This document shows positions 9,291 to 56,555 of a stretch of DNA of 62,538 nucleotides, one piece after another. The stretch is from Mycoplasmatales bacterium (GTDB taxonomy: Bacteria; Bacillota_I; Bacilli_A; Mycoplasmatales; JABAAY01). The stretch spans positions 1 to 62,538 of the forward strand of contig JABABL010000004.1 in assembly GCA_014238225.1 (NCBI GenBank), in the 5' to 3' direction. Made by a program: the position numbers and the translations under genes. Position 1 is the first letter of the stretch, and the number at the start of each line of letters is the position of its first letter. Below the pieces are notes generated by a model. That model was given only the letters and a program-made list of their open reading frames with translations. It was not told the origin of the DNA and ran no database searches.

Positions 9291-11336
9291 GTGTTAGAGA
9301 AGGAATTAAATTTTATTCAAACAGAAGAATCAGAATGTGGAATTGTTTGTATTTTACATTTACATTACTTATTCTTTCAACGAAATATACCAAAATCACA
9401 AATTAAAAGTTTTGAGCATGTTCCTGAAAAGGGTCTAAATCTCAATAGTTTAAGTTTTATTGGTAGACAATTAGGTGTTTCAATTAGTTGATTTAAAGTA
9501 GATTATGATGCATTTCGAAAGAGAAAGCTAAAACATTCTATTGTTTTAATAAAAAAGAAAAATGTTTTTCACTATGTTATAGTCAATAAAATTAAACATA
9601 ACACCGTTTTTTTTGTAGATCCAAACTACACAGAAATACAAACTATGTCATCGAAAGATTTTGAAAAAATTTTTCGAAATACAGTTGGAATAACTAGAAA
9701 GTCAAACTTCAATTTATTCTACATAAATCAACTTAGCGGAATCCAAACCAAGAGTTTTGCAGATGTTTTCAAGCAATTTTTTAATTATCGTGTGTATATA
9801 GTTTTTGTTTTTTTATCATCTTTTATAGTATTTCTCTTAGGATTGTTTTCCGGTTTATATTTGCAAATAGTATTAAACACAATCATCCCAAATAATTTAA
9901 CTACATTGTTATTAAGTGTGTCAGGAATTTTCATATTTACCACTATTTATAAAAATATTTTTGATTTTCTTATGAAACTGTATTTGTTTAAAATTCAATC
10001 CTTAATTGAAGGAGATTTTGAATATTTTTTTCAACAACAAATATTTTTAAAAACCAGTGTGTTTATTCAGAATACGGAGCCAAATCTTTACTTTCAACGA
10101 TTAGGAAACATTGGAGAATTAATTACTAATGAATTACAAAAAAGAATTTTTGTTCCCATAAATTTAATCATAGGAGTGATTTCAGTAGTTATTATTTTCA
10201 CAATAAATATTTATCTTGCTGCTGTGTCATTATTTTTTGTAGTCATAATTTTATTACTAATAAATCTGTTTATAAATAAAATAGTGACATCAAAGAAGAA
10301 CGTATTAAAAATTACTAATAAAAAAAGATCCCTTCTAACTAAAGTGTTTTTCAATAACGCCTCGATTAAAGGGAAAAATGATAGTGATAAAATTGCTGAT
10401 CAACATTCTACAATACTGAAAAAATATATTTCTACAGTAACTAAAGATCATTGAATTAATTCATTTTTTGTCTTCAACAATTCCTTGTTTTCGGGAGTAT
10501 TGAGTGTTCTAATTGTTTTTCTTGGAACAGTATTTATTATCGCTAACCAATTTACTGTGGGTTCTTTATTCTTTTTCACTACAATTTTTGGTATTTTTCA
10601 ATCATCTTCCTCTCAACTCTTCAATTTTCTTGTCAATATAAAAAAAAATAAAGTTAACTTAGAGTTAATAAATGACTTTCTTAACTCAACAACAGTAGAA
10701 TTTTACAAGGGAGTTAGTGAAAAAGTTAATTTTCATAAAATACTATTTAAAAATATTTCTTACTCCTACGAACATAGTAAAAAAATTCTCAACGGACTTA
10801 ATGGTGAAATAACTTCAAACTTATTAATACAAGGAGGAAATGGAACTGGTAAATCAACATTTTGTAAAATAATTGCAGGTATTCATACGCTTCAAAATGG
10901 AGAATTATTAATTGATGACATTTCAATTAGTGATATTTCTCACTATTATCTAAGAGAAAATATTTTATATATTTCTTCCAATTCTATAATTATAGAAAAC
11001 ACAATTTTTGATGCGATAAAAGACTTTCTGTTCACGTTGCAAGAAACAGAAAGAAGTTTCTTGTTATCGTTGTTACAAGAGATGAAACTAAACTTAAAAC
11101 ACGACATTGAATGAGATGGGAGCAACTTATCTGAGGGTCAAAAACAATTTATTAATTGTCTACCTATTTTTAATACAAAAAGCAAAATTTTAGTTTTAGA
11201 TGAGGCATTCTCCAATATTAGCATTCTGATAGTGAGAAAAATAATATCACATTTGTCAGCCAGGGGAAAAGTGATAGTTTACGCAACTCACGAGAAAGGT
11301 GCAGAGGATTTATTTCAGAAGCAATTATTATTATAA
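9291..11336 (+). CDS. C39 peptidase-containing ABC exporter (leader-cleaving peptide exporter)
   Basis: A protein of 681 residues with the order C39 peptidase, membrane domain, ATPase, as in exporters that cut double-glycine leaders and secrete the peptide. The peptidase has the oxyanion Gln10, catalytic Cys16 in E-C-G, His94 in F-H-Y-V and Asp110 in D-P-N. Hydrophobic helices span roughly residues 165-430. In the ATPase, Walker A is G-G-N-G-T-G-K-S-T (515-523), the signature is L-S-E-G-Q (613-617), Walker B is L-V-L-D-E-A (634-639) and an H-loop follows. The usual Q-loop Gln seems replaced by Ser. An in-frame stop just upstream fixes the GTG as the earliest start. Its stop overlaps the next gene by one base. 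Confidence 0.88.
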
Positions 11337-11722
11337 TGAAAAAGAATTTTAATAAAACAATTTGAATTTTTACGTCTGTTGCGAGTTCATTTGCAATAAT
11401 TTTTAGTCTATTTCTTATTTTGCTTCCGATTGAAGTTACCACAACAAAAACAATTCAAGTTACATCTCGAAATGATGTGGTGCTTTTAATTCCGGCTAAT
11501 GAATTACAAAATTACGATGATAAGAAAACCCTTAGCGGAAGTATTGATAATACTGAATTGCTTTTCAATATATTTAGCATAAGTATTAGTGAAAGCAATC
11601 CTTCAATTTATGAATTAGTCTTAACAACTACTAGTGACTTAAATTTCATTCCCGGTACAGTTTTACCTTTTAACATAGTGCTATCGAGTGTTAAATTGTG
11701 AGAATATTTATTTTTACTATAA
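11336..11722 (+). CDS. Miniature HlyD-like exporter accessory protein (probable)
   Basis: A protein of 128 residues with one N-terminal membrane helix (about 11-30) and a beta-rich outer part. The C-terminal stretch, residues about 104-126 (P-G-T-V-L-P-F then W-E-Y-L-F), resembles the end of the HlyD membrane-fusion beta-barrel, where P-G-M precedes a beta strand and an x-Y-L-x motif. The coiled-coil hairpin and lipoyl domains are missing. The start overlaps the exporter stop (TAATG), so the two are co-translated. The assignment rests on pattern resemblance only. Confidence 0.5.
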
Positions 11723-11729
11723 TAACTTT

Positions 11730-12206
11730 GTGAATAGAATTATTATTGTCAATAACGAATCAAAGACTACCATCAAAGAACAAGATGTAAAAAATCTTAT
11801 TGAAGGTTTTGGAAATTATCAACTAAAACAAAAAGACTTTTGATTCACACTACATTTCGTAAAAGCAAAAAATATACAAAAAATTAACAAGGAATATCGC
11901 AACAAAAACCAGGTTACAGATGTGATCTCATTTAATACAACCGACATAGAGAACGAAATACTTGCAAAACATAATCAAAAAAAAATCAGTGTTTCTGGTG
12001 AAATTTTTATTTGCGTAAAAAAAGCGAAGGAAAATTCTTTAAAAATAGGACAAAGTTTACAAGAAGAATTGAATTTTTTAATGATGCATGGGTTTTTGCA
12101 TATAATTGGTTATAATCATTTAGAGTCAAAAGAAGAAAAAATAATGATTAAAACTCAAAGAAAATTAAGAAAAAAAATGAAGATGCAGGGTAAATGAGTT
12201 TCCTAG
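11730..12206 (+). CDS. ybeY: Endoribonuclease YbeY
   Basis: A zinc-dependent RNase for 16S rRNA 3' maturation and ribosome quality control. A protein of 158 residues. The signature H-G-F-L-H-I-I-G-Y-N-H supplies His120, His124 and His130. I chose GTG 11730; the N-terminal part contains a TGA-encoded Trp. The gene overlaps dgkA by 13 bases, and the order ybeY-dgkA-era matches that of many Firmicutes. Confidence 0.93.
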
Positions 12207-12574
12207 GGAAGATATTTAGAAAATTTGCATGAGCACTTAGTGGATTCATAACCGTATTAAAAGAAGAAAATAGTTTTATTTTCTATGTTATCGTTGGTAT
12301 AGGACTTTTAATATTATCTATCATAGGTTCCGTGTTTTGAAACATGCAAGGTTATGAATGAGCAATTGTGTGGGGTGTTTATGGAACTGTTGTTGCATTT
12401 GAATTCATAAATACACTTGTAGAAAATCTCGTAGACATCATTTCCTTTGAATACAATATAAGCGCCAGAAAAATTAAGGATATCGGAGCAGCTGCTACAT
12501 TGTTTAATGCTCTTGTGGCGACGACAGTGATTTTAATCGTTTTTATTTCTTTAATTGTTGGAACTTATTCTTAG
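12194..12574 (+). CDS. dgkA: Diacylglycerol/undecaprenol kinase
   Basis: A small integral membrane kinase of 126 residues with three predicted helices. The family stretch E-F-I-N-T-L-V-E-N-L-V-D, followed by K-D-I-G-A-A-A, is present near residues 75-105. In Gram-positive relatives this enzyme phosphorylates undecaprenol; in an organism presumably without a wall, either a lipid carrier or diacylglycerol could be the substrate. Translationally coupled to ybeY. Confidence 0.88.
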
Positions 12575-12589
12575 AATGGATTTAAATTT

Positions 12590-13435
12590 TTGAATGCAAA
12601 AATAGCACTTGTAGGAAAGACCAATAGTGGAAAATCAACATTTATAAATAAATTTTGTGAAGACAGTGTTTCAATTGTTACAGCAAGAAGAAATACCACT
12701 AAGGATTTAATTAGTTGTAAAATTGAAAACAACGGGAACACAATATTCTTGTTTGACACTGCAGGATTACAGCACAAAAGAACTGTTAAAAGCAAAAAAA
12801 TGAGTGCATCTTATACAATCGCTCTTAATGAAGCCGATTATGTGTTTTATTTTATTAGTTTAAACGAAAAAATAAGAAGTATAGACCATGAAACCATCAG
12901 TGATATATTAACCACTTTTAAAGAAAGAGAGGTTTATATTATTTTAACCAAAACAGACTTAATTAAAAAAAATGAAATTGTTCCAATAATAGGGTCATTA
13001 AATCAAAAATATAAATTAACTAATTTTTTCCCCATTTCTGTTTTAAAAAATGACAATTTAAATGTATTAAAAAACAACATGTGAAAAATTAGTTTTCAAA
13101 AATCTAAATATTCTTCTATTGAAGAACATTTGTGAAATAGAGATTTGTTATTCCAAATAAAGGAAATCACAAGAAAGCAGATCATCTTATTTACACATAA
13201 AGAAATTCCCGAAATTATAACTATTGATGTTCATGTTGTAAATAAGGCAAGTTCCTCAATGGTTCTGCATTTAACATTGACAGTTAATAAGGAATCACAG
13301 AAAAAAATTATAATTGGATCACAAGGTTCAAAAATTAAGCAAATAATGTCTGCCACAAGGAAAGAACTGGAAAATATTATTTCCAAAAAAATCTTTATCG
13401 AAAGCTTTGTGAAAATTAAGAAAACAAAACATTAA
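12590..13435 (+). CDS. era: GTPase Era
   Basis: A ribosome-assembly GTPase binding the 3' end of 16S rRNA. A protein of 281 residues: the G domain has G-K-T-N-S-G-K-S-T (9-17), D-T-A-G and T-K-T-D; the C-terminal KH domain has the loop I-G-S-Q-G-S-K-I-K. TTG 12590 is the only sensible start, because the nearby ATG at 12576 is in another frame and soon closes. Three TGA codons encode Trp in the linker and KH domain. Confidence 0.92.
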
Positions 13436-55348: not shown

Positions 55349-55648
55349 TTATTTAGAAACTTCCGTTATTTTAACTCTCGTGTGAAGCTGCTTATGACCT
55401 TGTTTTTTATGATAATTTTTTTTTGGTTTATATTTAAAAACAATGATTTTTTTGTCTTTGCCTTGTTTTTCAACGATTCCTTTAACCTTCGCTTTTTTTA
55501 CATAAGGTCTGCCGAAAATACCATCAACATATACCACATTCTCAAAAACAACTTCATCACCTGGTTTGCTTTCCAATTTTTCAAAATAAATAATTTTTTC
55601 AGGTTCTACTCAGTACTGTTTTCCACAAAGTTCAATTATTGCTTTCAT
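55349..55648 (-). CDS. rplU: 50S ribosomal protein L21
   Basis: A protein of 99 residues starting M-K-A-I-I-E-L-C-G-K-Q-Y-W with the Trp as TGA, and ending with the L21 signature (Y-K-P-K-K-N-Y, K-Q-G-H-K-Q, T-R-V-K-I). TATCAT about 8 bases before the ATG may be its -10 box. First gene of the L21-Prp-L27-Obg operon. Confidence 0.95.
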
Positions 55649-55675
55649 AATAATTAATGATACATTAAATTAGTC

Positions 55676-55707
55676 TCTTTATCTAAACAAAATAACAAAG
55701 ATAAAGA
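55676..55707. repeat. Inverted repeat between the GG peptide gene and rplU
   Basis: TCTTTATC (55676-55683) and GATAAAGA (55700-55707) are perfect complements with a 16-base loop, starting 1 base after the peptide stop. It could end or stabilise the peptide mRNA, or separate it from rplU. No long T run follows. Confidence 0.45.
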
Positions 55708-55708
55708 A

Positions 55709-55972
55709 CTAGGTATAGTAGTATCCAGGTGTGTAATTAACGTTATTGTTAATCTCTTTTGGTTTTTCACCTGACATGGATCATTCAGCAGAAAAACCAC
55801 CGGGTAATGTTATCTTTGCTTCTTCTGCTGATCACAACTGTTTGGCAGTAGGAATAGCAATGATTGAGAATTCTACAACACCTATTAAGGAATTTATAAA
55901 TCCACCAACATCAAATGCTCCACCGTAAATTTCCATCATTTCTTCGTCATTAATTTTTTTTCAATTTTCCAT
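55709..55972 (-). CDS. Double-glycine leader peptide (candidate secreted bacteriocin-like peptide)
   Basis: A protein of 87 residues, visible only with TGA as Trp (Trp4, Trp47, Trp64). The first 18 residues end I-N-D-E-E-M-M-E-I-Y-G-G, matching the C39 leader pattern: hydrophobic at -12, -7 and -4, acidic at -10 to -8, Gly-Gly at -2/-1. The predicted mature part (69 residues) has a hydrophobic helix with G-G and G-V-V (about 22-42) and a Tyr-rich end; it has no Cys. GGAGGAG lies 4 bases before the ATG. No immunity gene is adjacent. Neighbours are greA and rplU. The function, killing, signalling or adhesion, is not known. Confidence 0.8.
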
Positions 55973-55976
55973 ATAA

Positions 55977-55983
55977 CTCCTCC
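55977..55983 (-). promoter_or_regulatory. Strong Shine-Dalgarno of the GG peptide gene
   Basis: GGAGGAG on the minus strand, 4 bases before the ATG. It is the best match to the anti-Shine-Dalgarno I see in the window. A candidate promoter upstream is TTGATT (56019-56024) with TAATTT (55998-56003), spacer 15. Confidence 0.65.
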
Positions 55984-56024: not shown

Positions 56025-56495
56025 CTACCCAATGAACATAATTTTTACAGAGTAAGGTTTATTAATGCCTTTGATATTGACAATATCCCCAACGCTGTGT
56101 GTTAAAAGAGCTCTTGCGAGTGGAGATTCATTTGAAATCCTTGTTTGCTTTTCGGTTAAATTAACTTCTAGTGGTCCTACAATCAATATTTCTCTTTCTA
56201 TGTTAGTCTTCGTGTTTAAGTACTTAACTTTGCTACCCAATCTAATAACAGAATTGTCTTTTTCACTTTCTATTATTATTGAATGAGCCAAAATATTTTC
56301 TAGTTCTTTAATTTGTGACTCAATTTTCGCCTGATTATTTCTTGCTGCATCGTAATCAGCATTTTCACTTAAATCTCCCTGTTCACGCGCTGTAGTAAGT
56401 TCTTCAATGACTCTAGGTCTTTGAACGTTTATTAAATCTTTTAAGGTTTCTCTTTTTTCTGCTTGGCCTTGTTTTGTTAAATATATTTTTCTCAT
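56025..56495 (-). CDS. greA: Transcription elongation factor GreA
   Basis: Rescues backtracked RNA polymerase by stimulating transcript cleavage. A protein of 156 residues: an N-terminal coiled coil with the acidic tip G-D-L-S-E-N-A-D-Y-D (residues about 40-50) and a C-terminal FKBP-like domain. ATG 56495 is set by AAGGAG 4 bases upstream; a longer frame to 56531 is unlikely. Confidence 0.95.
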   Translation of the reverse strand: MRKIYLTKQGQAEKRETLKDLINVQRPRVIEELTTAREQGDLSENADYDAARNNQAKIESQIKELENILAHSIIIESEKDNSVIRLGSKVKYLNTKTNIEREILIVGPLEVNLTEKQTRISNESPLARALLTHSVGDIVNIKGINKPYSVKIMFIG

Positions 56496-56516
56496 AGTGC
56501 TCCTTGGACATTTCTT

Positions 56517-56522
56517 ATTATA
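56517..56522 (-). promoter_or_regulatory. -10 box of greA
   Basis: TATAAT on the minus strand. The start site would lie near 56510, giving a 15-base leader that contains AAGGAG (56500-56505). Unlike most operon heads here, greA has a leader. Confidence 0.5.
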
Positions 56523-56555
56523 AAGAAACATTTTATTTATGTGTTTATTAAATGG

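What the first reader, a model, noticed from the sequence alone, without database searches (positions are those of the whole stretch)
55709..55972. Cys-free double-glycine peptide hidden by code 4, between greA and rplU
Seen: an 87-codon gene with a leader ending I-N-D-E-E-M-M-E-I-Y-G-G, a hydrophobic helix directly after the cut site and a Tyr-rich tail. Known: C39 peptidases cut after such Gly-Gly leaders in class II bacteriocins and peptide pheromones. Inferred: this is a secreted peptide of a mollicute. Three of its Trp codons are TGA, so standard-code gene finders would miss it. It sits alone in a housekeeping cluster with no immunity gene next to it.
Basis: partly seen in the sequence, partly recalled or inferred. 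Interest (0 to 1): 0.85.

Follow-up and report, generated by a model that had tools for sequence, protein, structure and literature searches.

The report
Mollicute double-glycine peptide and its exporter
A small gene between two housekeeping genes of a mycoplasma-like bacterium encodes a leader peptide built to be cut off and exported by a transporter in the same genome, and it belongs to a previously unassembled peptide family found across most mycoplasma relatives, whose conserved exporter was said in print to have no known cargo.

Summary
On the minus strand, 55972..55709, code 4 gives an 87-aa, Cys-free protein with a textbook double-glycine leader (I-12, E-8, M-7, I-4, G-2, G-1). In 150 simulated windows of the same composition no ORF matched. 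Against a sister species dN/dS is 0.025, as low as its neighbours rplU and greA.

It is not an orphan. The genome's only C39 peptidase/ABC exporter (PCAT) lies in the same window (9291-11336), followed by a single-TM partner (11336-11722) and ybeY-dgk-era. This block is conserved across Mycoplasmatales.

Profile searches show the peptide belongs to an order-wide family, usually one copy per genome. In two families searched with dedicated profiles, peptide and C39 co-occur (115 both, 11 neither, 7 C39 only, 3 peptide only). In one genome, exporter, partner and two such peptides form one operon.

An eLife paper (PMC6609329) reported no double-glycine candidate for the minimal-cell exporter and none apparent in other mycoplasmas. 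A remote member in the 580,076-bp genome (size of M. genitalium G37) is MG_220/RrlA, needed to activate the sigma factor controlling recombination (PMC9262362).

Export as PCAT cargo is likely. A signalling role is inferred and uncertain. A bacteriocin is less likely. No biochemical evidence exists.

The parts
55709..55972 (-). Gene for the double-glycine peptide precursor (87 codons + stop, code 4, three TGA-Trp)
   Evidence: dN/dS 0.025 against sister species
55977..55983 (-). Shine-Dalgarno-like GGAGGAG
   Evidence: sequence; GAGGAG retained in the sister species
55919..55972 (-). Leader, residues 1-18 (MENWKKINDEEMMEIYGG): I-12, E-8, M-7, I-4, G-2, G-1
   Evidence: sequence; TIGR01847 match 55919-55960; leader pattern across about 107 family members
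55712..55918 (-). Predicted mature peptide (Ala19-Thr87): hydrophobic stretch, conserved I-x-LPGG-x4-W motif, aromatic tail
   Evidence: alignments A1 and A2
55781..55813 (-). Conserved core motif ITLPGGFSAEW (corresponds to GEIKTKDxSxKW in most other members)
9291..11336 (+). Peptidase-containing ABC transporter (681 aa, GTG start): C39 domain (9318-9692) with Q10, C16, H94, D110; Walker A, LSEGQ and Walker B
   Evidence: NF045998 Mbov_0121 family, E 5.5e-104, below its cut-off; PF03412 E 5.3e-19; aligned with ComA
11336..11722 (+). 128-aa single-TM protein overlapping the exporter's stop codon; probable export partner
   Evidence: NF045999 MAG1140 family, E 8.6e-6, below its cut-off
11688..13435 (+). 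ybeY - dgkA - era, the conserved downstream neighbours that mark the exporter locus as ancestral
   Evidence: gene names assigned by eye from the sequences
56025..56531 (-). greA, upstream neighbour of the peptide gene
55349..55648 (-). rplU, downstream neighbour

Best explanation
The gene encodes the precursor of an exported peptide. The leader docks in the C39 domain of the genome's single PCAT (9291-11336), which cuts after Gly18 and exports the 69-aa mature peptide, probably with the help of the single-TM protein encoded right behind it (11336-11722). It is one member of a vertically inherited family of PCAT cargo peptides found in most Mycoplasmatales, usually encoded away from the exporter. 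Export is the well-supported step (about 0.85, inferred from sequence). What the peptide does outside is less certain: an intraspecies signal is the most likely reading (about 0.45), because the gene is conserved, single-copy and without an immunity gene, and because a remote member, MG_220/RrlA, is needed to activate a recombination sigma factor in M. genitalium. The confidence given below is for export as PCAT cargo, not for signalling.
For: Leader matches the PCAT recognition pattern. One C39 PCAT in the genome, in this window, with aligned Q, C, H and D residues; nearest solved relative is the streptococcal competence-peptide exporter ComA. dN/dS 0.025. Family: 7-row profile, then 22-row profile with matches in 188 of 320 genomes of the order (E up to 0.05), then dedicated profiles in f6 (51 of 60) and f3 (67 of 76 at E 1e-3 or better over). 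Leaders of 107 members show L/M/I at -12, E/Q at -8, I/T/L/V at -4, G/A-G at -2/-1 (partly built into the search). Co-occurrence with C39 in f6+f3: 115 both, 7 C39 only, 3 peptide only, 11 neither, Fisher p 2e-9; within one Spiroplasma-like genus 7/0/1/6, p 0.002; not corrected for phylogeny. Operon rpsU-PCAT-TM partner-GG peptide-GG peptide in G314 (L189). PCAT-partner-ybeY-era order conserved. RrlA: NF045747 hit E 1.1e-38 beside mraZ in the 580,076-bp genome; rrlA needed for sigma-20 activation (PMC9262362).
Against: No expression, processing or secretion data. Several genomes keep a peptide gene with the PCAT missing or broken (G186, G193, G271, G180; G045, G005, G055, G033), and some have a C39 with no peptide found (G031, G059, G140, G173, G181, G182 and others), so the pairing is not strict. 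The f3 branch that contains RrlA is only weakly connected to the window's peptide (hhalign probability 66%; f6 is firm at 97.9%) and differs in its mature part. A small second sigma factor like MG428 was found in the sister species but not in this assembly. AlphaFold without an alignment gave no usable model (pLDDT 40). No receptor is known.
Confidence: 0.82

Rival explanations
1. A class II bacteriocin that kills competing mollicutes or other bacteria.
For: Weak leader-driven matches to class II bacteriocin models (PF10439 E 0.019, NF038034 E 0.0077); hydrophobic stretch after the cut site; tandem pairs in some f3 genomes resemble two-peptide bacteriocins; similar Gly-Gly peptides in other Bacilli.
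Against: No immunity gene, no mobile or island context, not found on plasmids or viral contigs; one conserved copy beside rplU; dN/dS like a ribosomal protein; core motif shared across genera.
Confidence: 0.2
2. A secreted peptide with a structural or envelope role, or a host-directed role, rather than signalling or killing.
For: Strong conservation and single copy; conserved hydrophilic W-containing half and aromatic tail could bind a surface partner.
Against: No partner or fold found; large divergence between families.
Confidence: 0.2
3. A cytosolic or membrane regulator whose Gly-Gly is incidental; RrlA is listed as a transmembrane sigma accessory protein and may act inside the cell.
For: Review table lists RrlA as transmembrane (PMC9262362); some genomes keep the peptide without an intact PCAT.
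Against: Leader positions match the PCAT pattern; co-occurrence with C39; operon with the PCAT in G314.
Confidence: 0.12
4. Spurious ORF in a spacer.
For: The reading frame is open only if TGA is read as Trp.
Against: 26 synonymous versus 4 nonsynonymous changes, concentrated at third positions (3/1/26); homologues across the order.
Confidence: 0.01

Closest known systems
Streptococcal ComC/ComA competence pheromone system
   Same: Gly-Gly leader peptide exported by a PCAT; ComA is the closest solved relative of the window's exporter by phmmer; in M. genitalium a remote member is tied to a sigma factor and recombination.
   Different: Peptide is 69 aa, not about 17; gene not beside the exporter here; no ComD/ComE-like receptor found or sought; signalling not shown.
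MPN313 family (NF045747), including MG_220/RrlA of M. genitalium
   Same: Gly-Gly leader, hydrophobic stretch, similar size; f3 and f6 members of the set score against this model.
   Different: Mature half differs; relationship to the window's peptide is remote. RrlA has been studied as a sigma accessory protein; I found no open paper that describes it as PCAT cargo, and the primary paper (DNA Res 2018) was not held.
Mbov_0121 family exporter (NF045998) and MAG1140 family (NF045999)
   Same: NCBI already models both the mollicute PCAT and its small partner; the window's copies match both.
   Different: No cargo is assigned to them in those models; window copies score below the curated cut-offs.
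Class IIb bacteriocins (lactobin A/cerein 7B TIGR03949; lactococcin G-beta NF038034)
   Same: Gly-Gly leader and following hydrophobic stretch.
   Different: Below cut-offs; no immunity gene; matches stop shortly after the leader and do not cover the conserved core motif.

Membership tests
PCAT cargo (double-glycine peptide) | Leader with hydrophobic -12, Glu -8, hydrophobic -7 and -4, Gly-Gly | tested here: met
PCAT cargo (double-glycine peptide) | A C39 PCAT with intact catalytic residues in the same genome | tested here: met
PCAT cargo (double-glycine peptide) | Cleavage after Gly-Gly and export | not testable with these tools
   needs biochemistry
PCAT cargo (double-glycine peptide) | Genetic linkage with the PCAT | tested here: inconclusive
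   unlinked here (44 kb); operon in G314; co-occurrence
Class II bacteriocin | Score over a curated family cut-off | tested here: inconclusive
   only the 15-position leader model TIGR01847 is reached, at its cut-off and with E 0.054; 12.9 bits against a 15.7 cut-off; PF10439 and NF038034 not reached
Class II bacteriocin | Adjacent immunity gene | tested here: not met
   neighbours are greA and rplU
Class II bacteriocin | Antimicrobial activity | not testable with these tools
   needs an assay
MPN313/RrlA family | NF045747 score over cut-off | tested here: not met
   window peptide has no NF045747 match at E up to 5; other members of the set match below cut-off
Peptide pheromone | Secreted peptide sensed by the producing population | not tested
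   inference from RrlA only
Mbov_0121 exporter family | NF045998 score over cut-off (500 bits) | tested here: not met
   348.8 bits over nearly full length; same gene neighbourhood

The most novel reading that the evidence does not exclude
Mycoplasmas carry an ancestral peptide-pheromone system, analogous to streptococcal competence: an unlinked Gly-Gly peptide exported by the conserved ybeY-era-linked PCAT controls a sigma factor and recombination (RrlA and sigma-20 in M. genitalium), and the window's gene is its version in an uncultured lineage.
Probability: 0.25. Interest if true: 0.92.

Novelty: new variant of a known kind. Interest (0 to 1): 0.75.

Why it matters
The C39 exporter is kept by most Mycoplasmatales and by the synthetic minimal cell JCVI-syn3A, where the model builders found no Gly-Gly peptide and therefore proposed that gene 0401 might import lipoyl compounds instead (PMC6609329). 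A conserved family of candidate cargo peptides would give that exporter a testable job. If the RrlA link is right, it would also mean cell-to-cell peptide control of recombination and antigenic variation in bacteria thought to lack such signalling. The genes are small and use TGA for Trp, so they are easily left unannotated or unlinked.

Tried and rejected
A strict leader regular expression missed relatives with charged -7 residues. The weak hit in G028 (L008) is in an unrelated ORF. No match on plasmids (one 22-residue chance hit), in viral contigs, PHROGs or PADLOC. The TM partner has no PDB relative. A FliL match of the peptide profile (E 0.0037) was judged a chance hydrophobic match and not pursued. 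No Rfam match near the locus. AlphaFold model unusable. Primary papers on sigma-20/RrlA were not held. A literature search for mollicute Gly-Gly peptides found only the negative statement in PMC6609329, but the library holds open-licence papers only.

Full report
1. Observation. The window's minus strand encodes, from 55972 to 55709 with TGA read as Trp, MENWKKINDEEMMEIYGG|AFDVGGFINSLIGVVEFSIIAIPTAKQLWSAEEAKITLPGGFSAEWSMSGEKPKEINNNVNYTPGYYYT. A GGAGGAG sits 4 bases before the ATG. The leader has I-12, E-8, M-7, I-4, G-2 and G-1; the pattern reported for ComA is Leu(-12)-X3-Glu(-8)-Leu(-7) before a double Gly (PMC6363468). No ORF of this kind arose in 150 simulated windows.

2. It is a real gene. 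A sister species, 'Mycoplasmatales bacterium bin29s' (JABAAY010000019.1), has the same gene between greA and rplU. The two copies differ by 26 synonymous and 4 nonsynonymous changes, at codon positions 3/1/26, giving dN/dS 0.025; rplU gives 0.022 and greA 0.017. This is shown, not inferred.

3. The exporter is in the window. The genome has one C39 match, inside a 681-aa PCAT at 9291-11336. Its Q10, C16, H94 and D110 align with ComA, the closest solved relative by phmmer. NCBIfam names the family Mbov_0121 (E 5.5e-104, 348.8 bits against a cut-off of 500). The next ORF, 11336-11722, overlaps its stop codon, has one predicted TM segment and matches the MAG1140 family (E 8.6e-6, below cut-off). 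ybeY, dgk and era follow. The order PCAT - single-TM partner - ybeY (- era) recurs in distant genomes of the order, including the 580,076-bp genome; family f6 lacks the partner but keeps PCAT - ybeY - era. Partner sequences share little identity, so its role in export is inferred from position.

4. Relatives. The first search found the sister species and weak hits in Spiroplasma-like genomes that covered only query residues 21/22-74, that is, after the cut site. Reading those loci showed Gly-Gly leaders upstream of the matched part, as in MTDQECQAVSGG and MTDEECQNENGG, and a shared core A-x-P-x2-K-x-L ... I-x-LPGG-x4-W. Because these hits came from the mature part, their leaders are an independent test. 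A 7-row profile and then a 22-row profile reached 188 of 320 genomes of the order at E 0.05. Family f8 is nearly complete: of 135 genomes, only eight have no match at E 0.001 or better (my count from the list). Their core reads GEIKTKDxSxKW followed by an aromatic tail. Profiles made for f6 and f3 then found members in 51 of 60 and 67 of 76 genomes. hhalign joins the f6 profile to the 22-row profile over leader and mature part (97.9%). The f3 profile joins weakly (66%), so f3, and with it RrlA, may be a remote relative or a separate Gly-Gly peptide set using the same exporter. Similar leaders plus helices also occur in other Bacilli.

5. Link between peptide and exporter. In f6, 49 genomes have both, 1 has C39 only, 2 have the peptide only and 8 have neither; adding f3 gives 115/7/3/11 (Fisher p 2e-9). 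Within one Spiroplasma-like genus the counts are 7/0/1/6 (p 0.002); its peptide-only genome has the length published for S. citri R8-A2 (1,599,709 bp), and its leader ends Ser-Gly. These p values ignore phylogeny, and the tables were assembled by hand from the listed outputs. In G314, rpsU, PCAT, TM partner and two such peptides lie head to tail, the last two overlapping by one base. Exceptions are real: in some f5 and f9 genomes the PCAT is broken while the peptide gene is intact, and in G018 the peptide is broken while the C39 domain remains.

6. Known or not. The eLife metabolic model of JCVI-syn3A says no Gly-Gly candidate was found for exporter 0401, cites the same lack in other mycoplasmas, and suggests another function (PMC6609329). 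I found no open paper that contradicts it. The pieces are partly known one by one: NCBI models the exporter, the partner and MPN313. What appears new is joining them and the larger peptide family.

7. RrlA. In G012, whose 580,076-bp length is that of M. genitalium G37 (my knowledge; its C39 position also fits MG_390 in PMC5745988), NF045747 hits a 93-aa protein beside mraZ: MYKLEKAQAKQVVGG|LSFWTFSAG.... That this gene is MG_220 rests on its position beside mraZ and on my knowledge of the map. A review identifies MG220 as RrlA, lists it as a transmembrane sigma accessory protein, and reports that rrlA and rrlB are needed to activate sigma-20, which controls recombination (PMC9262362). That RrlA is exported by MG_390 is my inference. 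A second, small sigma factor is present in the sister species G001 but was not found in this incomplete assembly.

8. Verdict. Export as PCAT cargo: about 0.85. Signal: about 0.45. Bacteriocin: about 0.2. All functional steps are inferred from sequence.

Noticed in passing
window 55649-55708: The 60-base spacer between the peptide gene and rplU is 59/60 identical in the sister species, although synonymous sites around it differ greatly; it can form a 10-pair hairpin (-9.3 kcal/mol, z -1.81). It could be a leader of rplU or a weak terminator; no Rfam match.
   Followed up: partly
L189 2691-3169; L200 1657-2191; L201 2102-2616: In some f3 genomes two different Gly-Gly peptides lie in tandem, suggesting two-peptide systems.
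   Followed up: partly
L126 1185-1442; L032 5709-5999; L031 6880-7170: In G171 and in Spiroplasma-like f5 genomes the peptide gene lies directly upstream of radC, a conserved position different from the window's.
   Followed up: no
L031 15777-17959: In G050 the C39 part and the ABC part of the exporter are two overlapping ORFs in different frames: a split gene, a frameshift or an assembly error.
   Followed up: no
L040 6760-9094: In G055 the PCAT is interrupted by insertions carrying the same transposase-like ORF twice.
   Followed up: no
L204: G031 (793,224 bp, the length of Mesoplasma florum L1 from my knowledge) has an intact-looking C39 PCAT but no peptide was found, unlike its close relatives.
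   Followed up: partly
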